From Erysipelotrichaceae bacterium (GTDB lineage Bacteria > Bacillota_I > Bacilli_A > Erysipelotrichales > Erysipelotrichaceae), in NCBI GenBank assembly GCA_017550145.1, contig JAFZQG010000004.1, forward strand, positions 434,001 through 498,000: a stretch of 64,000 bases of DNA, written 5' to 3'. This document shows, piece by piece, positions 36,731-51,475 of this stretch (positions are counted from its first letter, which is position 1; the number at the start of each line of letters is the position of its first letter). The translations under genes were made by a program, and so were the position numbers. The notes beneath the pieces were generated by a model, which saw only the letters and a list, made by a program, of their open reading frames with translations, was not told the origin of the DNA and searched no databases.

Positions 36731-37942
36731 ATGAAAGAATATGAATTCAAAGATCTTAATGGCAATGTTTTAATCAAGGGAGAACTTCCCGATGGTTTCA
36801 AGACTCAGGCCTTCATGGAAGTAAAACAGTATCCGAAGAACCAGACTGTGTATGTCAAAGCTACAGCTGAAAAAGAAGGATGTACGATCGTCTACGAAAC
36901 AGGCAAAGGTTACATTTATACCAAACAGGCGATACGCAATGCGTTTGGAGTCGCTCAGCCGCAGCCGCAACTAGGCACACAGAATGAATCGGGATATTAT
37001 TATGCTCAGCCCGTTTCCATCAAGGACGAGCTGGATGGGTTTGCTTCAGCGTTGTTAAACAAGAAAGTTGAAGGAAAGGATTACTACAATCTTTCCGAAA
37101 AGGCGGAAAAGAAGGCACGTGAAATCTTTGATAAAGAAATAAACGATGCTATTAAAGAATTTCAGATCGGGCTTTCGATCTCGCCGATGCAGATAGCTGA
37201 TATCTTCCGTAATTATCTTTTAGATGGCGGTCTGGGTGTTTATGAAGACGGCAAGAAGATCCTGGCAGTCTTCATGTACCGGTTCGGTACCGAAGTGGAT
37301 ATCGTACCGGGCAACGGTATCAGTGAAAACATCACCGGAGAACCGTTCGGCTATGCACAGATCACACCTGGTGCATTAACATCAAGCGCTTCCTGGGGAT
37401 ATCCTTATGTAGTCTACATGATCAGTGATAAAAAAGAAGATCTTGAAGCTATATTCAGTTTTGCTGAAAGCGTTGAAGTTTCGGAGCAGATGAAGAAATA
37501 CGCAGAGCAGATCAGAGAAAATGTCAGAAATTTCCAGATCCAGCAAGCTCAGATGTATACCATGCAGACACAGCAGATGATCAATGCTTCCTGGGCTCAG
37601 CATCAGCAGGCCTGGGCTGCTTCGGATCGTCTGAGCAGACAGCTCTCTCAGGATATGGATGAATGGCGGGCTGGTCAGGCTCAGCTGAGAGCGCAATCCG
37701 ATGCAAGATTTACACCTTCATATACACAGGGCGAAACCATGGATGACCGCATTCAGCGGATGAGACATGAATCGATAATGGGTGTTGAAACTTACGAAAG
37801 AAACGACGGTTCGACAGTGGAATATTCCAACTATGCCGACCGTGTCTTTGAAAACAATCTCGATAATACCACGCATTTTGGAACGCATCATTATTTTGAT
37901 GACTATGTACCGGAAGGCTGGCATGAGATGAAGAAAAAGTAA
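36731..37942 (+). CDS. Hypothetical protein with Gln-rich linker
   Basis: 403 residues. An N-terminal domain of about 70 residues precedes a linker rich in Pro/Gln, a middle alpha/beta region (about 100-250), then a Gln/Ala-rich helix (about 270-320: QQAQMYTMQTQQMINASWAQ) and a polar tail containing tyrosine-rich segments. No signal peptide or membrane helix. AGAGGTG precedes the ATG, and a TATAAT lies at 36705-36710. Family not recognised; the terminator at 37956 makes it monocistronic. Confidence 0.65.
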   Translation: MKEYEFKDLNGNVLIKGELPDGFKTQAFMEVKQYPKNQTVYVKATAEKEGCTIVYETGKGYIYTKQAIRNAFGVAQPQPQLGTQNESGYYYAQPVSIKDELDGFASALLNKKVEGKDYYNLSEKAEKKAREIFDKEINDAIKEFQIGLSISPMQIADIFRNYLLDGGLGVYEDGKKILAVFMYRFGTEVDIVPGNGISENITGEPFGYAQITPGALTSSASWGYPYVVYMISDKKEDLEAIFSFAESVEVSEQMKKYAEQIRENVRNFQIQQAQMYTMQTQQMINASWAQHQQAWAASDRLSRQLSQDMDEWRAGQAQLRAQSDARFTPSYTQGETMDDRIQRMRHESIMGVETYERNDGSTVEYSNYADRVFENNLDNTTHFGTHHYFDDYVPEGWHEMKKK

Positions 37943-38014: not shown

Positions 38015-38503
38015 ATGATTAAGAACGGCTTTGAAAAATTGAATGGTGATAACTGGCTGGCTAAGGAAATCGAGAGAGAAAACCGTGTTTCAGCCTGGGA
38101 TTTTGATGAGGGCAAGAATCTGCGTAATGAACACGCTCAGGATTGCGATGCAAAGGGCTTGAGACTGGCGCATGAAGAAAACTGCGAGGCCAGAGAAGTT
38201 GCTGATGAGCATAGCGCAATTCACAGCGGCAGAAAAACCCCGAATGACAACAAGATCTCAATATGGTTTGTGATCGATACGATCTTCCTGGTCCTGATCA
38301 TGATGCTCAATCTGGGAACACGGACACGTTTCTATTATCCGACGCTCGTGCTGTTTCTGGGACTGAATCCGGGTATCTTTATCTGGATCCTCTTATTTAA
38401 ACGTATGCCGCCGTCCTGGTATCTGATCCTCTTGCTGATTATCACACTGTTATTAGAGTATTACGGTCTATTTTTGTACCGTTACAGATTAATGTATTTT
38501 TAA
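38015..38503 (+). CDS. Hypothetical membrane protein upstream of SPFH protein
   Basis: 162 residues. A polar, charged N-terminal region (about 1-82) precedes two or three hydrophobic helices (about 83-160). No family is recognised. An AAGGAT-type site precedes the ATG. It ends 7 nt before the SPFH gene, so the two are co-transcribed; in other bacteria the neighbour of SPFH proteins is often an NfeD-like membrane protein, but this one lacks the OB-fold domain. Confidence 0.65.
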   Translation: MIKNGFEKLNGDNWLAKEIERENRVSAWDFDEGKNLRNEHAQDCDAKGLRLAHEENCEAREVADEHSAIHSGRKTPNDNKISIWFVIDTIFLVLIMMLNLGTRTRFYYPTLVLFLGLNPGIFIWILLFKRMPPSWYLILLLIITLLLEYYGLFLYRYRLMYF

Positions 38504-38510
38504 GGAGGTT

Positions 38511-39407
38511 TTGAAAATGAATTTTGTATTATTTGCTATTTTGATTCTTCTGCTGTTTGTGGTTCTGACAGTTGCACTGTCATGTCTGTGCGTCGTACCG
38601 CAGGGAAATGCCTGGGTCGTTGAAAGACTGGGCAAGTATTCTGCAACCTGGCAGGCCGGTCTGCATCTTAAACAGCCGATTCTGGAAAGAATTGCCAGAA
38701 AGATCTCTTTAAAGGAACAGGTTGCCGACTTCGAACCGCAGTCCGTTATCACTAAGGATAACGTTACGATGAATGTCGACTCTGTCGTTTACTTCCAGGT
38801 CATCGATCCTAAGGCTCTGACCTATGGTGTCGAAAGACCGATCGCGGCAATCGAAAATCTCTGTGCCACGACTTTAAGAAACATTATCGGTTCCATGACT
38901 CTTGATGAAACACTGACTTCCCGTGAGAAGATCAACAATGAGACTATCAAGGTTCTTGATGAAGCTACCAATAAATGGGGTATCGATATTACCCGTGTCG
39001 AGGTTCAGAATATCACTCCGCCTAAATCCATTCAGGAAGCAATGGAGAAGCAGATGAAGGCTGAACGTGAAAAGAGAGCTGTCATCCTGACTGCCGAAGG
39101 TGAAAAGCAGTCTGCTATCACCAGAGCTGAAGGTGAAAAGGAATCCGCTATCTTAAGAGCTGATGCGGTCAGAGAAGAAAGAATCAGAACCGCTCAGGGT
39201 GAAGCGGAAGCCATCAGAGCCGTTGCGGAAGCTCAGGCCAAGGCCATTGAAATGGTCAATGAAGCCAAGCCTTCCAAGGAATATCTCTCCATCAGAAGCA
39301 TGGAAGCAGCCGAGAAGATGGCAAACGGTCAGTCAACCAAGATCATCGTTCCTTCCAATCTGCAGGATGTGACGACACTGGCGACTGTCTTCAAAGAAAG
39401 CAAGTAA
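38511..39407 (+). CDS. SPFH/Band 7 (stomatin/QmcA-like) membrane protein
   Basis: 298 residues. One N-terminal membrane helix (about 2-24) is followed by the SPFH domain (VPQGNAWVVERLGKYSATWQAGLH, IARKISLKEQVADFEPQSVIT), then coiled-coil repeats rich in Glu/Ala/Lys/Arg (AEGEKQSAITRAEGEKESAI) and the C-terminal LSIRSMEAAEKMANGQS. Such proteins oligomerise into membrane microdomain cages and often regulate membrane proteases. AAGGAGG precedes the ATG. Confidence 0.93.
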   Translation: MKMNFVLFAILILLLFVVLTVALSCLCVVPQGNAWVVERLGKYSATWQAGLHLKQPILERIARKISLKEQVADFEPQSVITKDNVTMNVDSVVYFQVIDPKALTYGVERPIAAIENLCATTLRNIIGSMTLDETLTSREKINNETIKVLDEATNKWGIDITRVEVQNITPPKSIQEAMEKQMKAEREKRAVILTAEGEKQSAITRAEGEKESAILRADAVREERIRTAQGEAEAIRAVAEAQAKAIEMVNEAKPSKEYLSIRSMEAAEKMANGQSTKIIVPSNLQDVTTLATVFKESK

Positions 39408-39546: not shown

Positions 39547-39972
39547 GTGATACCGTTAATCGAAAATGTTTATGCCAGTAAAGGCCTGTATCAGAAACTG
39601 CTGGGTCCCATATGCAAGAAGTATGATCTGACAGATTCCCAGATCATTATTCTGCAATATCTGGCCGATCCCAATCCGGTCGATACGGCTACAAAGATCG
39701 TAAAAGCCCAGAGATTAAAGAAATCGGTCGTTTCGATGTCGATCGATGATCTGGAGAAGAAAGGTTTCATCAGTTCCTACTATCAGGAAGGTGACCGCAA
39801 GACCAAACATCTCAAGGTCAATGATACGGCCAAGCCTGTCATCAAAGATGCCCGTAAGATCCAGGATGACTGTTATGAGCTTCTTACAGACGGCTTTGAT
39901 GAGGAAGATCGAAGCAGGCTTAACCGTTATATGAAGAAGATCAACAGAAATATCAGCAGGTACGGAAAATGA
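39547..39972 (+). CDS. MarR-family regulator leading the ATP synthase operon
   Basis: 141 residues. A winged helix (LTDSQIIILQYLADPNPVDTATKIVKAQRLKKSVVSMSIDDLEKKGFI, then YYQEGDRKTKHLKV) fits the MarR fold, including the D-x-R wing motif. It starts with GTG, with GGAGG at 39538-39542 upstream. Its TGA overlaps the ATG of atpI, so it is translated with the operon. Most atp operons have no dedicated regulator, so this gene probably senses a ligand linked to energy or membrane state (inference). Confidence 0.85.
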   Translation: MIPLIENVYASKGLYQKLLGPICKKYDLTDSQIIILQYLADPNPVDTATKIVKAQRLKKSVVSMSIDDLEKKGFISSYYQEGDRKTKHLKVNDTAKPVIKDARKIQDDCYELLTDGFDEEDRSRLNRYMKKINRNISRYGK

Positions 39973-40319
39973 ATCTCAGGATATATCTGATTACGGCGCT
40001 GATCGCATTAGTATTAAGCGGTTTTACATTTTTTATCGATTATCGGATCGCCTTGGGAATTATCTTATCGGCAGGTTATTCGTTAGTGAATATGCTGATG
40101 CTGTCGGGAAGTATGAAGGTGATGATGGCAGATAAGGAATCCGGAGCTAACTATTCTGCTCTGATTGCCGGAAATATAGTTAGATTTGGATTACTTCTGG
40201 TGGTAATATATATAGCGGTGAAAAATCCCGGACTGTTCAATATGTACGGGGTGGCAGCCGGATTTATACTGTTTATGATCGCGCTGATCATAGACGCTTT
40301 AAGTAGAAGAAAGGGGTGA
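39969..40319 (+). CDS. atpI: AtpI-like ATP synthase assembly protein
   Basis: 116 residues, four hydrophobic helices (for example LITALIALVLSGFTFFIDYRIALGI). Position immediately before atpB, small size and hydrophobicity fit the AtpI family, which is thought to help c-ring assembly and Na+/Mg2+ handling. Sequence conservation in this family is low, so the identification relies on context. Its TGA overlaps the GTG of atpB. Confidence 0.75.
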   Translation: MNLRIYLITALIALVLSGFTFFIDYRIALGIILSAGYSLVNMLMLSGSMKVMMADKESGANYSALIAGNIVRFGLLLVVIYIAVKNPGLFNMYGVAAGFILFMIALIIDALSRRKG

Positions 40320-41005
40320 GTGATATAAAGATCCAGTCAACGGTTTATTCGATCATTATCATTACGGTTTTTATGGCACTGTTACTGGTCTATATCAACC
40401 GTAAACTTGTGAAATTCGATCCCTTGAGTCAGCCGAAAGGTGTGGTCTTACTGATGATCATGCTGACGGAGACGATCGATGGGATGGTCAGGGACAAGAC
40501 AAATGATGAGGTGGCAAAGTATCTGACACCATACATCATGACGGTAGCGACCTATATCTTTCTGAGTAATATCGCCGGACTGTTCTCGCTTGAGACTCCG
40601 ACATCGAACTATTCGGTAACGCTGACCTTAGGTGCCCTCACAGTCATTCTGATCGAAGTTTACTCATTCAAGGCCAGAGGCGCCAAAGGTTATATCAAGA
40701 GCTGGTTTGAACCGATGCCGCCGTTTGTGATCCTGAATGTCTTGAGCAAGTTCTCGACCTTGCTGTCATTATCTCTACGTCTGTTCGGTAATATCCTGTC
40801 AGGTGGTATCCTGATGTCGGTTATCTACCAGATGCTGGGGTCGGTATCAAAACTGATCCCGTTCATGGGACAGTTCAACATCATGGGCGTATTAGTCGCC
40901 CCGGTTCTGCATTTCTACTTCGACCTGTTCTCGGGAGTCATGCAGGCATTTATCTTTATAACCTTATCCATTTCATTTATAGCGAAGGAATTACCTGAAA
41001 AATAG
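40316..41005 (+). CDS. atpB: F0 subunit a
   Basis: 229 residues with about five helices. The conserved region LSLSLRLFGNILSGGILMSV contains the essential Arg of helix 4 that faces the c-ring carboxylate. It starts with GTG, overlapping the atpI stop. It forms the ion half-channels in the membrane. Confidence 0.92.
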   Translation: MSDIKIQSTVYSIIIITVFMALLLVYINRKLVKFDPLSQPKGVVLLMIMLTETIDGMVRDKTNDEVAKYLTPYIMTVATYIFLSNIAGLFSLETPTSNYSVTLTLGALTVILIEVYSFKARGAKGYIKSWFEPMPPFVILNVLSKFSTLLSLSLRLFGNILSGGILMSVIYQMLGSVSKLIPFMGQFNIMGVLVAPVLHFYFDLFSGVMQAFIFITLSISFIAKELPEK

Positions 41006-41017
41006 GAGGAAAAATAT

Positions 41018-41248
41018 ATGGAAAAAGCATTAATGGCGTTTGCGGCAGCATTATGTGTATTGGGTGGCTGTGTAACGGGTATCATGGAAGGCAAGGTAGC
41101 CGTCAAGGCTGTCGAGTCAATCGGAAAGAACCCTGATGCCGCTGACAAGATCCAGTCAATGGCCATCATCGGTGCCGCCATTTCGGAGACCTGTGCCATT
41201 TACTGTCTCTTGGTTGCTTTCCTTATCATCTTCATCTTAGGAGCATAG
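41018..41248 (+). CDS. atpE: F0 subunit c with two-carboxylate ion-binding motif
   Basis: 76 residues, two helices. Helix 1 has Glu24 in IMEGKVAVKAVES where H+/Na+ enzymes usually have Gln, and helix 2 has Glu57-Thr58 with Tyr62 (SETCAIY), the Na+-coordinating set. This corresponds to the Glu32/Glu65 pair described in the Fusobacterium nucleatum rotor, implying Na+ as coupling ion. The glycine zipper of helix 1 reads G17-V19-G21-M23-G25, so two of five glycines are replaced. An AGGAGG precedes the ATG. Confidence 0.93.
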   Translation: MEKALMAFAAALCVLGGCVTGIMEGKVAVKAVESIGKNPDAADKIQSMAIIGAAISETCAIYCLLVAFLIIFILGA

Positions 41249-41252
41249 TTAT

Positions 41253-41762
41253 ATGCAGATAGTTGATATTCTTGAACTTCTTGTTCCTAATGTCTGGACG
41301 GCGATCACGCAATTGTGTGCCACAGCGGTACTGTTTTTCCTTATGTACAAGCTGGCCTACAAACCTGTCCGGAACATTCTGGATGAAAGAAGCAGGTATG
41401 AACAGTCTAAACTTACAGAAGTAGAAGCACTCAAGGAAGAAAACGAAAAGCTCAATCTCGAGGCCAAGGAAACGATTGCCCAGGCTAATAAATCAGCTGA
41501 AGCAATTGTCAGAAAAGCCAGAGAAGAAGGTAACAGCGTCAAGAACGAACTGATCGAGCAGGGCCGTCAGCAGTCGGCTCAGATGATGGAAAATGCACAG
41601 AGAGATCTCGAACTCCAGCGCAGCAAGATGCTGAAGGAAGTTCACAGCGAGATCGTCGATGCGGCGATCACCGCTGCCGAGAAGGTTCTTGAAAGCAAGA
41701 TCGATTCTCAGAGTGAGAAACAGAGTATCGATTCTTTTGTTAAGGAAGTAATAAATAAATGA
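41253..41762 (+). CDS. atpF: F0 subunit b
   Basis: 169 residues: an N-terminal membrane helix (about 13-33) and a long charged coiled coil ([47 protein letters not shown] in sections), ending in the delta-binding region. It forms the peripheral stalk, connecting F0 to the delta part of the fusion protein that follows. Its last bases overlap the ATG of the fusion gene. Confidence 0.9.
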
Positions 41763-43822
41763 GTTTCAATATCTCCATTTATGCCGGAAACCTGATGGAG
41801 CTGGTCAGCCAGGAAGATCTCATCGATACCTGTTACAGGGATCTTAAAGATATCAATAATGCCCTGAACCGTGATGAGGAACTTCTGAAGTATATTACTT
41901 CGGCTGAATACACTTCTTCACAGAAAAAGAAGAAACTTCAGGAAGTTTTCGCCAATGAGCTTGATGAGACCGTTTTATACGGTCTGTTTCTGGTTATCGA
42001 ATCCATGCCGCGCAAGCACATGGAATATGAACTCATCCATGCATTTCTGGCGTACTATTACCGTTCCAGAGGTATCGAATTCGGCTGTGCCTATTCTGCC
42101 CGTGAGATCGATAAAAGAGATCTGATGACGCTGGAAGCGGCCTTCTCTCAGAAACTCAGCCGGACGATCAGACTTGAAAACAAGATCGATAAGAAACTGA
42201 TCGGCGGTGTGAAAGTCGTCATCAACGGATCGGTGTGGGACGGCACCTACAAGTCCCGCATGGATGAACTGAAGGATACCTTATTAAATAAAGAAATAGA
42301 AACAGATAATGCGGATCTGGGTCTCGATCTTAATAAGGAAATAGCGAATTTCAATCTCACGCAGATCAAGACCGAATCCGAACTTACGACCGGTCAGGTT
42401 ACCAGTGTTGCCGATGGCGTCGCAAACATCAGTGGCATCTATAACGCGATGGCCGGTGAAATCCTCAATGTCGGCGGGACCAAGGCCATGGTCATGGACC
42501 TGGAAGAAAACAATATCGCCGCCGTCCTTTTAGGCAACGACAAAGACATCGTCAAGGGTACGGAAGTATCCTCTACCGGCAAGGTTATCGAAGTACCGGT
42601 AGGTGATGAACTGTTGGGCCGTGTCGTAGATGCCTTAGGCAGACCGATCGATGGCAAGGGTGTCATCAAGACAGCCCACACCAGACAGATCGAAGTAAGT
42701 GCTCCTGGCATCATCGATCGAAGCCCGGTCAATGAACCATTACAGACCGGTATCAAGATCATCGACTCGATGATTCCGATCGGCAAGGGTCAGCGTGAGC
42801 TGATCATCGGTGACCGTCAGACGGGTAAGACCGCTCTGGCGATCGATACGATCATCAATCAGAAGGGCCGTAACGTCAAATGTATCTATGTGGCTATCGG
42901 TCAGAAGAACTCGACGGTTGCCCAGATCATTGAGAAACTGAATAACTACGGTTCCATGGCTTATACGACAGTCGTTGTCGCGGGAGCCAGTGAACTCGCA
43001 TCCTTACAGTATATTGCGCCGTATTCCGGCTGCAGTATCGGTGAATACTGGATGAATAAAGGTGAAGATGTGCTGATCGTCTATGATGACCTCAGTAAAC
43101 ATGCGGTAGCCTACCGTACACTTTCATTGCTGCTTAGAAGGCCTCCAGGAAGAGAAGCTTATCCTGGTGATGTCTTCTATCTGCATTCCCGTCTGCTGGA
43201 GAGATCAGGAAAACTTTCCGAAAGACTGGGCAAGGGAAGCTTAACGGCTTTACCGATCATTGAAACCCAGGCCGGTGATATTTCGGCATATATTCCGACC
43301 AATGTCATTTCGATTACCGATGGACAGATCTTCTTACAGACCGAAATGTTCAACAGCGGTATCAGACCGGCTATCGATTACGGTCTCTCCGTATCGCGTG
43401 TCGGTTCGGCTGCCCAGATCAAAGCGATGAAGCAGGTTTCATCTTCTTTGAAACTTGATCTTTCCCAGTATCAGGAAGTACTGGATTTTGCGCAGTTCGG
43501 TTCCGATCTTGATCCATCAACAAGAGCCAGGATCAACCATGGCCGTCATCTGGTGGAAATGCTGAAACAGCCGCAGTACCAGCCGATGGCTACGACTGAT
43601 CAGATCATCCTCTTACTGGCATCCCGTCTGGGAGTGCTCGATGATATTCCATTAGAAGAGATCAAGGAATATGAAAAAGATCTGCTGATCGAGATGAATT
43701 CCGTTCATCGCGATCTGATTAAAGAAATAGAAGAAAAGAAAGTGATTGATGATGAGCTCAATGAGAAGCTTTCTTCGATCATTACGGTTTTTACGACCCA
43801 GTTCAGATTAATGGACAATTAA
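41759..43822 (+). CDS. atpHA: F1 subunit delta-alpha fusion
   Basis: 687 residues in one open frame. Residues 1-178 are a complete delta (OSCP) subunit, ending [30 protein letters not shown]. Residues about 180-205 are a linker including what looks like the alpha N-terminal helix. Residues about 206-687 are a complete alpha subunit: [18 protein letters not shown]-loop GDRQTGKT (351-358), and the arginine-finger region [13 protein letters not shown]. No ATG, GTG or TTG start with a ribosome binding site lies between residues 169 and 214. No other atpA is in the window. Confidence 0.93.
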
Positions 43823-43823
43823 T

Positions 43824-46066
<2,243 letters not shown>

Positions 46067-46067
46067 A

Positions 46068-46472
46068 ATGGCGTTTAAAGTTGATCTGATTACCTATGAA
46101 GGTGTCTATAAATCTTTCGAATCAGCCAAACTTAATGTGCCGACCAGCGAAGGAAGAAGAACGATCTTAAGCAATCACATGCCGATCATGATGCCTTTAG
46201 AGATCGGGGTCATCGAGACCGATGAAGATGGCATCTTGCGTCATTATGCGATCAACGGCGGTGTATTATACTTTAAAGATAATGTTGCCGAACTGGTTGC
46301 GGATAATGTCGTAGATGTGGCGGAGATCGATATCGAAAGAGCCTATCGGGATAAGGAGAAGGAATCCGAAAGACTGAAGAAAGCCAGAAGAGAAAACGAA
46401 AGGATCAGGGCTGAACATAAGATCGAGGTAGCGGAAAATCTGATCAGAGCTGCCGAAAAATATCAGGAATAG
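46068..46472 (+). CDS. atpC: F1 subunit epsilon
   Basis: 134 residues: beta-sandwich (LNVPTSEGRRTILSNHMPIMMPLEIG, YAINGGVLYFKDNVAELVAD) followed by two C-terminal helices rich in Glu/Arg. It is the last gene of the operon and can regulate ATP hydrolysis through its helices. Starts 1 nt after atpD and is followed by a terminator. Confidence 0.94.
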   Translation: MAFKVDLITYEGVYKSFESAKLNVPTSEGRRTILSNHMPIMMPLEIGVIETDEDGILRHYAINGGVLYFKDNVAELVADNVVDVAEIDIERAYRDKEKESERLKKARRENERIRAEHKIEVAENLIRAAEKYQE

Positions 46473-49834: not shown

Positions 49835-51475
49835 ATGCCAAAAATCGTCTTGGAACACATAACAAAACGTTATGATAGATTCTATGCCGTCGATGATCTC
49901 AATCTGGTCATCGAAGACAATGCTTTCGTTACCTTACTGGGTCCTTCGGGCTGCGGTAAGACAACGACTTTAAGAATGATCGCCGGTCTGGAGACTCCGA
50001 CCAGTGGTAAGATCACGATCGGTGATCGTGTCGTCTATGACTCTGAAGAGGGTATCAATATTCCTGCCAACAAGCGTAAGGTCGGATTCCTGTTCCAGAA
50101 CTACGCTCTGTGGCCTAACATGACCGTCTATGAGAACATCTCTTTCGGTCTGACTAACGTCAAGGAAGCTTTACCGGTCATCAACTTTGAAGGCAAGACT
50201 GCTTCCCAGCTGCTTAAGGCTTTAAACAGACCTAACGATATCGTTAAGACCATTAACGAGTGCTACGACAAGAAAGGCAAGCTGGATGAAAACAAGGCTA
50301 TGATCAAACTGATCGATGCCTATGAGATCTCCCAGTATTCTGCCAAGAAACTGCTCGGCTACAAACTCCATACAGCTTCTGATGTGGCAGCCGAAGCAAA
50401 GAAACGCGTTGATGAATTAACGGCTGTCGTTGAAAAGGCTAAAGCCGATGCAGCAGCCAAAGGTTACACTCTTGATGATAATTTCGTTAACCTGAAAGAT
50501 GGTGAACCGGTCAAGGAAGTCAGAAGACTTACAAAAGAAGAGATCGATCTGGCTGTCAGAAGAGTATCACGTATCGTTAAGATCGGTATGTTTATGGACA
50601 GATATCCGGCTGAACTTTCCGGTGGTCAGCAGCAGCGTGTGGCTATCGCCAGAACGCTCGCTCCGGAACCAACTGTTCTGTTCATGGATGAGCCGTTATC
50701 CAACCTGGATGCGAAGTTAAGACTCGAAATGAGATCTGAGTTACAGAGATTGCATCTGGAAACAGGTTCAACATTTGTCTATGTTACCCACGACCAGATG
50801 GAAGCCATGACTCTGGCTACCAAGATCTGTCTGATCGACAACGGTCTCTTACAGCAGTACGATGCTCCGCTTGATGTCTACAACAAGCCAAACAATCTCT
50901 TCGTTGCGGACTTCGTCGGTAACCCTGCCATCAACTTCATCGAAGCTCACGGCAAACAGGTCAAAGGCAACTTTGAACTGGATGTCTTCGATGGTAAGAA
51001 GCTGACCTTCGTTCCTAATGAAGCGATCGACATCAACAAGTGGCACGAAGATTACGCAGCTATGAAGAAAGAAGAAGCCGATCTGCTCAATGAAAAGGCA
51101 GCTCAGAAGGGCTACGTTGAAAAGAGCAACAAGGAAACCACTTTCAAGTATCATGTTGCGAAGGTTGATGAACTGGAAGACTATGATGATGAAGTACAGC
51201 TGAGCGATGAGGATTTCGTTATCGGTATCAGACCGGAATTCGTCGAAATCTCCAAAGGCAGCAAGTTTGAAGGCGAAGTATATTCTTCAATGCCTACCGG
51301 TATGGAAACAACCGTCAGAGTTGCCATCGGCAATTACCTCCTGACAGGTGTCATGTTCGGTGGTGTCGTCTATAAACTGGGTGATAAGGTCAATGTCGGA
51401 TTCAAAGGCAACAATGCCATCCTGTTTGACCGCAAGTCAGGCAACATCATTGCTTTAGGTTCATTAAAAGCCTAA
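49835..51475 (+). CDS. ABC importer ATPase with large helical insertion
   Basis: 546 residues. Walker A GPSGCGKT (37-44), Q-loop FQNYALWP (87-94), signature LSGGQQQR (261-268), Walker B VLFMDEP, D-loop SNLDAKLR, switch VTHDQ. Between the Q-loop and the signature are about 160 residues instead of the usual 45; residues about 107-228 form a charged helical insertion. The C-terminal TOBE-like region also carries an acidic/Lys-rich insertion. It follows the permease by 3 nt and completes the importer. Confidence 0.9.
   Translation: MPKIVLEHITKRYDRFYAVDDLNLVIEDNAFVTLLGPSGCGKTTTLRMIAGLETPTSGKITIGDRVVYDSEEGINIPANKRKVGFLFQNYALWPNMTVYENISFGLTNVKEALPVINFEGKTASQLLKALNRPNDIVKTINECYDKKGKLDENKAMIKLIDAYEISQYSAKKLLGYKLHTASDVAAEAKKRVDELTAVVEKAKADAAAKGYTLDDNFVNLKDGEPVKEVRRLTKEEIDLAVRRVSRIVKIGMFMDRYPAELSGGQQQRVAIARTLAPEPTVLFMDEPLSNLDAKLRLEMRSELQRLHLETGSTFVYVTHDQMEAMTLATKICLIDNGLLQQYDAPLDVYNKPNNLFVADFVGNPAINFIEAHGKQVKGNFELDVFDGKKLTFVPNEAIDINKWHEDYAAMKKEEADLLNEKAAQKGYVEKSNKETTFKYHVAKVDELEDYDDEVQLSDEDFVIGIRPEFVEISKGSKFEGEVYSSMPTGMETTVRVAIGNYLLTGVMFGGVVYKLGDKVNVGFKGNNAILFDRKSGNIIALGSLKA

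What the first reader, a model, noticed from the sequence alone, without database searches (positions are those of the whole stretch)
41018..41248. c subunit carries a two-carboxylate Na+-type ion site
Glu24 in helix 1 and Glu57-Thr58-Tyr62 in helix 2 align with Glu32 and Glu65-Ser66-Tyr70 of the Na+ rotor described in Fusobacterium nucleatum. This predicts Na+ coupling in a fermentative bacterium in which ATP hydrolysis would extrude Na+.
Basis: partly seen in the sequence, partly recalled or inferred. Interest (0 to 1): 0.55.

Follow-up and report, generated by a model that had tools for sequence, protein, structure and literature searches.

The report
Probable sodium-type rotor, unusual ATP synthase
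A gut bacterium's ATP synthase has a rotor ring with a probable sodium-binding site of a known type, but the sequence alone cannot settle sodium versus proton, and the enzyme around it is more unusual than the site: the ring's packing motif is broken and two other subunits are fused.

Summary
Window 41018-41248 (+) encodes a 76-aa F-type c subunit that aligns without gaps to the Fusobacterium nucleatum Na+ rotor; E24, E57, T58, Y62 fall on E32, E65, S66, Y70. The inference is only partly supported. (1) The four residues are not sufficient: Burkholderia-type N-ATPase rings have the same four, and the B. pseudomallei one is measured as H+-selective. (2) Thr67, which holds the structural water in Na+ rings, is Cys59 here. 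(3) 'ATP hydrolysis extrudes Na+' is not forced: the genome also encodes PEP carboxykinase plus an oxaloacetate decarboxylase Na+ pump that could drive ATP synthesis. Na+ remains the best reading (about 0.55). Two-carboxylate sites are published and common among these relatives. The unusual part is the rest of the enzyme: one clade combines invariant E24, a helix-1 glycine motif broken by Met/Tyr/Phe beside the site (30 of 37 against 0 of 98 other loci), a full-length delta-alpha fusion, and near-absence of Rnf. An engineered delta-alpha fusion builds multi-stalk enzymes with a raised ion/ATP ratio, so a natural multi-stalk Na+ ATPase is the boldest reading not excluded.

The parts
41018..41248 (+). 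atpE, F-type c subunit, 76 aa
41087..41089 (+). Glu24 codon (GAA) = Glu32 of F. nucleatum, second carboxylate
   Evidence: 37 of 37 in the fused clade
41186..41194 (+). Glu57-Thr58-Cys59 codons = Glu65-Ser66-Thr67 of F. nucleatum; Cys59 departs from the Na+ rings
41201..41203 (+). Tyr62 codon = Tyr70 of F. nucleatum
41066..41092 (+). Helix-1 stretch G17-C-V19-T-G21-I-M23-E24-G25, the place of GxGxGxGxG: Gly27 position is Val19, Gly31 position is Met23
40316..41005 (+). atpB, a subunit, 229 aa; stator Arg155 in SLRLFGN (codon 40778-40780)
41253..41762 (+). atpF, b subunit, 169 aa
41759..43822 (+). atpH-atpA, full-length delta fused to alpha, 687 aa (OSCP residues 8-175; alpha domains 211-676)
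43824..44663 (+). atpG, gamma
44675..46066 (+). atpD, beta, P-loop and GERTREG motifs present
46068..46472 (+). atpC, epsilon
39969..40319 (+). atpI-like (MG406 family, weak, below cut-off)
39547..39972 (+). MarR-family regulator overlapping the first atp gene by 4 bases

Best explanation
The gene encodes the rotor c subunit of the one F-type ATP synthase found in the genome. Adjacent hairpins form a site with two carboxylates. By analogy with F. nucleatum, Glu24 stays protonated while Glu57, Thr58, Glu24 and a backbone carbonyl hold one Na+ that is carried around the ring past stator Arg155 of the a subunit. Under physiological Na+ excess the enzyme most likely couples to Na+. It works in a Na+ cycle with an oxaloacetate decarboxylase encoded elsewhere (PEP + CO2 + ADP -> oxaloacetate + ATP by PckA; oxaloacetate -> pyruvate + CO2 with Na+ export; reactions recalled), so it can make ATP from that gradient or hydrolyse ATP to restore it. 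Shown: gene, alignment, conservation, operon, decarboxylase genes, no Rnf match. Inferred: Na+ rather than H+, constitutive protonation of Glu24, direction, ring size.
For: Ungapped alignment of the four residues with 3ZK1; the best PDB sequence hits 4bem, 3zk1, 1yce are Na+ rings and stand ahead of the H+ ring 2wie. Side-chain pattern fixed in 37 of 37 fused loci, and Glu-Thr-Tyr with Gln or Glu at 32 in most of 98 others. PckA, OadA, OadG-like, biotin carrier, BirA and OadB in a row, OadB 416.8 bits against a TIGR01109 cut-off of 190.6. OadB matches in 23 of 36 genus genomes and 17 of the 23 fused ones. No PF00361, cytochrome bd or COX1 match in the genome. F. nucleatum precedent with a decarboxylase-generated Na+ gradient (PMC3692424).
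Against: Burkholderia-type N-ATPase c subunits have the same four residues and the B. pseudomallei ring is H+-selective. Their helix 2 (E-T-M-A-I-Y-C-L) is closer to the window's (E-T-C-A-I-Y-C-L) than that of the Na+ rings (E-S/T-T-G-I-Y), although a cyanobacterial N-type c subunit also reads A-I-Y-C-L, with E-S-T. Thr67, present in 4bem c2, 3zk1 and 1yce, is Cys59 here. The genome also has a membrane pyrophosphatase whose best solved relative is a K+-insensitive H+ pump and which reads GNTVK at the K+ switch (switch recalled), so H+ is probably pumped too. Rnf, found in 115 of 145 family genomes, has no match in this genome. The predicted hairpin (pLDDT 94) does not separate the ions: its top structural hit is a H+ ring. 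OadA scores 717.9 against an equivalog cut-off of 718.
Confidence: 0.55

Rival explanations
1. The ring is H+-coupled. The two-carboxylate site is like the B. pseudomallei N-type ring, where Glu in helix 1 is a permanent hydrogen-bond donor, and the loss of Thr67 removes the water that Na+ needs.
For: B. pseudomallei ring is H+-selective by NCD-4 labelling; its plasmid-borne relatives match the window at all four positions with Met at 67; Cys59 is 35 of 37 in the clade; H+-type membrane pyrophosphatase in the genome.
Against: Cys is smaller and more polar than Met and may still hold a water; 37 of 98 other loci keep Thr67; a Na+ decarboxylase cluster is present.
Confidence: 0.32
2. One reading: the enzyme runs mainly as an ATP-driven Na+ extruder.
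For: Fermentative gene set; no Rnf match in any of the 23 fused genus genomes; 6 of those 23 also lack an OadB match, leaving ATP hydrolysis or untested pumps.
Against: This genome has a PckA-oxaloacetate decarboxylase cluster. Direction is not visible in the sequence.
Confidence: 0.25
3. Promiscuous site: Na+ at neutral pH and high Na+, H+ otherwise.
For: The F. nucleatum ring is itself computed as weakly H+-selective and works with Na+ because Na+ is in large excess; Cys59 could weaken Na+ further.
Against: No direct evidence here.
Confidence: 0.2

Closest known systems
F. nucleatum c11 Na+ rotor (3ZK1/3ZK2, PMC3692424)
   Same: Glu32/Glu65/Tyr70 pattern, Ser66 replaced by Thr; ungapped alignment; a Na+ decarboxylase in the same cell (abstract).
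   Different: Thr67 is Cys59; glycine motif broken at the Gly27 and Gly31 positions; delta fused to alpha; Na+ binding not measured.
A. woodii F-type ring (4bem)
   Same: Best PDB sequence hits; c2 has Glu-Thr at positions 65-66 in a Na+ ring.
   Different: Gln at position 32 and Thr at 67 in c2; Rnf-driven in that organism (recalled).
B. pseudomallei N-type c17 ring (PMC5376962)
   Same: Helix-1 Glu, Glu61, Thr62, Tyr66; altered helix-1 glycine pattern. Close relatives align at the same columns.
   Different: Met63 instead of Cys59; measured H+-selective; its own operon type beside a normal one.
Engineered delta(deltaN)-alpha Bacillus PS3 FoF1 and Acidaminococcus fermentans FoF1 (PMC12229609)
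   Same: Delta C-terminus fused to alpha N-terminus.
   Different: Here delta keeps its N-terminal domain; the c subunit is of two-carboxylate type.

Membership tests
F-type ATP synthase c subunit | Pfam ATP-synt_C match, two-helix hairpin, carboxylate in helix 2, place in an atp operon | tested here: met
F. nucleatum-type Na+ rotor (two-carboxylate) | Glu at 32, Glu at 65, Ser/Thr at 66, Tyr at 70 | tested here: met
   alignment; one search counts
F. nucleatum-type Na+ rotor (two-carboxylate) | Thr at 67 holding the structural water | tested here: not met
   Cys59; role of Thr67 from PMC3692424
F. nucleatum-type Na+ rotor (two-carboxylate) | GxGxGxGxG in helix 1 | tested here: not met
   Val19 and Met23 at the second and fourth Gly
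F. nucleatum-type Na+ rotor (two-carboxylate) | Na+ density, Na+ protection from DCCD/NCD-4, Na+-stimulated ATPase | not testable with these tools
   needs protein
N-type ATPase (B. pseudomallei-type ring) | N-type gene order (epsilon, AtpZ/AtpI, I, a, c, b, alpha in a Paraburkholderia operon) beside another synthase | tested here: not met
   order, where b is annotated as delta; window order; single c gene in the genome
Multi-stalk delta-alpha fusion ATP synthase | Delta C-terminus fused to alpha N-terminus | tested here: met
Multi-stalk delta-alpha fusion ATP synthase | Delta N-terminal domain missing | tested here: not met
   OSCP profile 5-172 of 172 matched; six helices at residues 5-102 modelled with block pLDDT 69-89
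Multi-stalk delta-alpha fusion ATP synthase | More than one peripheral stalk and a subunit per enzyme | not testable with these tools
   needs protein

The most novel reading that the evidence does not exclude
[quoted passage not shown] The Na+/ATP ratio would then be above the known range, which would let a cell without Rnf make ATP from the weak Na+ gradient of a single decarboxylation. Full-length delta would show that the N-terminal domain need not limit the enzyme to one stalk.
Probability: 0.16. Interest if true: 0.85.

Novelty: new variant of a known kind. Interest (0 to 1): 0.48.

Why it matters
The site alone is a further case of a published motif. What is useful is (1) a family in which position 67 varies (Thr, Cys, Val, Ala) on an otherwise nearly constant Glu/Gln-Glu-Thr-Tyr site, a natural series for asking what decides Na+ versus H+; (2) a c subunit whose glycine packing motif is broken by bulky residues beside the ion site, a test of how ring size is set; (3) both lie in an enzyme with a natural delta-alpha fusion, the arrangement used in the laboratory to make multi-stalk ATP synthases, so the open question whether multi-stalk ATP synthases exist in nature becomes directly testable.

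Tried and rejected
Reading the motif as proof of Na+: rejected because of the B. pseudomallei ring and the alignment of its relatives. A second ATPase as explanation for the odd rotor: rejected, one ATP-synt_C match in the genome and no second alpha among its matches. Rnf as the Na+ pump: no match in this genome. Membrane pyrophosphatase as Na+ pump: its sequence points to the K+-independent H+ type. Internal start for a free alpha: no Met is conserved between delta and alpha among the fused rows, and I saw no clear ribosome site there in the window (by eye). Structure of the c hairpin: canonical, does not discriminate ions. The delta-alpha model is poor over alpha (mean pLDDT 60, 14 sequences); only the delta part is used. 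In one search my alpha query was out of frame; its alpha column is ignored. One search counted 102 other loci; the check found four repeats among them and its counts (98) replace those. Paper searches on Erysipelotrichaceae or Lachnospiraceae (my first guess) with the ATP synthase, Na+, Rnf or the fusion gave nothing on this clade; led to PMC12229609. Only the held open-access library was searched.

Full report
What is there. The ORF at 41018-41248 (+) is the c subunit of an F-type ATP synthase in the order MarR regulator, atpI-like, a, c, b, delta-alpha (fused), gamma, beta, epsilon. Neighbouring genes overlap by 4 bases or lie at most 12 bases apart, and the nucleotide-binding motifs looked for in beta and alpha and the stator Arg155 of a are present. 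It is the only ATP-synt_C match in the 2.02 Mb genome.

The best hits are from three Na+ rings: A. woodii 4bem (c1 and c2), 3zk1 and I. tartaricus 1yce. The A. woodii c2 subunit carries Glu-Thr-Thr, so Thr58 in place of Ser66 is an accepted Na+ variant. The F. nucleatum paper (PMC3692424; passages and sections 8 and 15 read) gives Glu32, Val63 O, Glu65, Ser66 and a water as Na+ ligands, with Thr67 holding the water. The window has Cys59 at 67. That paper states that the motif is shared by other pathogens such as M. tuberculosis and S. pneumoniae, and its Figure S1 legend lists further species, among them Butyrivibrio and Oribacterium; the figure itself was not seen. The motif as such is therefore not new.

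Why the four residues do not settle the ion. The B. pseudomallei N-type c17 ring is described with a second Glu in helix 1 and Glu61, Thr62, Met63 and Tyr66 in helix 2 (PMC5376962, passages and section 6 read). It had been predicted Na+-selective from sequence, yet 15 mM Na+ reduced labelling to 40%, much like Li+ and Cs+ (55% and 44%), whereas pH 9 stopped it. The authors conclude H+. The paper numbers the helix-1 residue Glu30, which gives a spacing of 31 to Glu61 instead of 33, so I checked the columns. N-type c subunits of Paraburkholderia phytofirmans, Caballeronia and Burkholderia pyrrocinia from plasmids have Glu-Gly at the window's Glu24-Gly25 and Glu-Thr-Met-Ala-Ile-Tyr-Cys-Leu at Glu57 onwards, so all four positions do match. 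They differ from the window at 67 (Met against Cys). A fourth, from Picosynechococcus PCC 7002, has Glu at 32 and Glu-Ser-Thr; PMC5376962 says that the N-type enzyme of another cyanobacterium, Aphanothece halophytica, is Na+-coupled. This fits position 67 as the discriminator, but two cases do not prove it. Even the F. nucleatum ring is computed as weakly H+-selective and works with Na+ because Na+ is in excess. I put Na+ coupling at about 0.55.

Relatives. I compared c sequences in 37 loci with a delta-alpha fusion and 98 distinct others not shown to be fused (which corrects the 102 for four repeats). Fused: E24 37 of 37, E57 37, T58 37, Y62 37, C59 35 (S 2). Others: E57 98 of 98, T58 92, Y62 97, position 24 Q 54 / E 41 / I 2 / V 1, position 59 T 37 / C 31 / V 18 / A 9 / S 2 / L 1. 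Some of the 98 lack alpha in the stretch held, 12 are not Erysipelotrichales by title, and a few are near-copies of each other.

The broken glycine motif. Inner-ring helices of c subunits usually carry GxGxGxGxG. In the fused clade the positions of Gly25 and Gly29 are Gly in 37 of 37, but the Gly27 position is never Gly (V 24, I 11, A 1, T 1) and the Gly31 position, next to Glu24, is Met, Tyr or Phe in 30 of 37 (G 6, A 1); the Gly33 position is G 30, A 7. In the 98 others position 31 is Gly in 95 and bulky in none (A 2, S 1), and position 27 is Gly in 56, Met in 30. Fisher for the bulky residue gave 4e-24 with the uncorrected 102, kinship not corrected for. So the Gly27 change is widespread outside the clade; the bulky residue at 31 is the mark of the clade. 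PMC5376962 states that changes of these glycines to alanine can raise ring stoichiometry. A ring other than c11 is therefore a fair prediction, with no size claimed.

The fusion. Delta and alpha are one 687-aa frame with a complete OSCP profile. In the genus sample of 36 genomes, 32 have the protein: 23 fused (3 of them partial at contig ends) and 9 unfused, by reading the rows. In the order sample of 315 genomes the listed fused rows lie in three genera (weaker rows were not listed). On a beta-subunit tree of 62 rows the 26 fused ones form one clade with 100/100 support and a long stem of 0.52. In several unfused relatives delta and alpha are in one frame with a single stop between them, so loss of a stop codon is a simple route to the fusion. 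Because no second alpha gene is seen, every alpha should carry a delta unless it is cleaved, against the usual ratio of three alpha to one delta.

A link to engineered enzymes. Ueno et al. 2025 (PMC12229609; abstract, passages, sections 6 and 13 read) fused delta without its N-terminal domain to alpha in Bacillus PS3 and obtained up to three stalks and a subunits and an H+/ATP ratio of 5.8; in their cryo-EM 26% of particles had two stalks and 8% three. They name Acidaminococcus fermentans, and two UniProt entries, as natural fusions with such features. Here the N-terminal domain is kept, so membership in their design fails on that feature. One observation fits a changed crown all the same: at matched alpha-core identity (0.75-0.88), the alpha N-terminal segment that normally docks delta is 0.19 identical among fused pairs (195 pairs) and 0.51 among unfused (437 pairs), while the delta C-domain is 0.47 against 0.34, the N-domain 0.35 against 0.29 and the alpha barrel 0.57 against 0.67. 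A check without that alignment gave 0.19 against 0.50 (195 and 420 pairs). These sets hold 26 fused and 40 unfused rows; duplicates, partial rows and loci on a list of 14 non-Erysipelotrichaceae or uncertain ones were left out. That the N-domain is not less conserved than in unfused enzymes speaks against its having lost its role.

Ion pumps around it. Rnf-Nqr matches occur in 7 of 36 genus genomes, all 7 unfused, 0 of 23 fused (Fisher 1e-5). In the family sample 115 of 145 genomes match; of the 13 fused among them only G100 does, weakly (5e-24). The list of non-matching genomes was cut, so for G121, G123, G138 and G140 absence is read from their not being among the 115 listed. Because the fused enzymes are one clade this is one evolutionary contrast, not many. 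OadB matches occur in 23 of 36 genomes: 17 of 23 fused, 5 of 9 unfused and 1 of 4 without the synthase, so OadB does not track the fusion. In the window's genome the cluster reads PckA, OadA (717.9 bits, cut-off 718), a 78-aa protein in the place of OadG (not searched against families), biotin carrier, biotin ligase, OadB (416.8 bits, cut-off 190.6). A membrane pyrophosphatase is also present, nearest to a K+-insensitive H+ pump. No match was found for PF00361, cytochrome bd or COX1; the genome is 94% complete, so absences are not certain.

Verdict. The Na+ inference is likely but not established. The direction claim is not established and has a good alternative. The site is a member of a known kind, in an enzyme that is a new variant. 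Papers on this clade's ATP synthase were not found in searches.

Noticed in passing
41759-43822: Full-length delta fused to alpha in one 687-aa frame, in one clade across three genera; by gene dosage three delta domains per F1.
   Followed up: partly
L173, L174, L180, L185, L191 and others; rows with '1 TAG': In several unfused relatives delta and alpha lie in one frame separated by a single stop, in these five a TAG followed at once by GTG, a likely forerunner of the fusion.
   Followed up: partly
G000:C21:9000-28900 (L129 4841-10277): PckA, OadA, 78-aa OadG-like, biotin carrier, BirA, OadB in a row: a PEP carboxykinase-oxaloacetate decarboxylase Na+ pump module.
   Followed up: yes
G000:C25:356345-358351 (L213): Membrane pyrophosphatase with GNTVK at the K+-dependence switch, nearest to a K+-insensitive H+ pump.
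   Followed up: partly
L230 268-513, L228 1468-1713: In plasmid N-type c subunits the helix-1 Glu lies 33 residues before the helix-2 Glu, while PMC5376962 numbers it Glu30 (31 before Glu61): perhaps a numbering slip in the paper.
   Followed up: partly
49835-51475: ABC transporter ATPase whose ABC_tran domain spans residues 20-288 for about 135 profile positions, so it carries an insertion of about 130 residues.
   Followed up: no
36731-37942 and 38015-38503: Two ORFs (403 and 162 aa) without a Pfam match upstream of a Band-7 protein (38511-39407) and the atp operon.
   Followed up: no
G002, G059, G092 and others against G000 (same GTDB genus): Genomes placed in one genus carry two clearly different ATP synthases (fused without Rnf, unfused mostly with Rnf); operon replacement or a mixed genus would explain it.
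   Followed up: no
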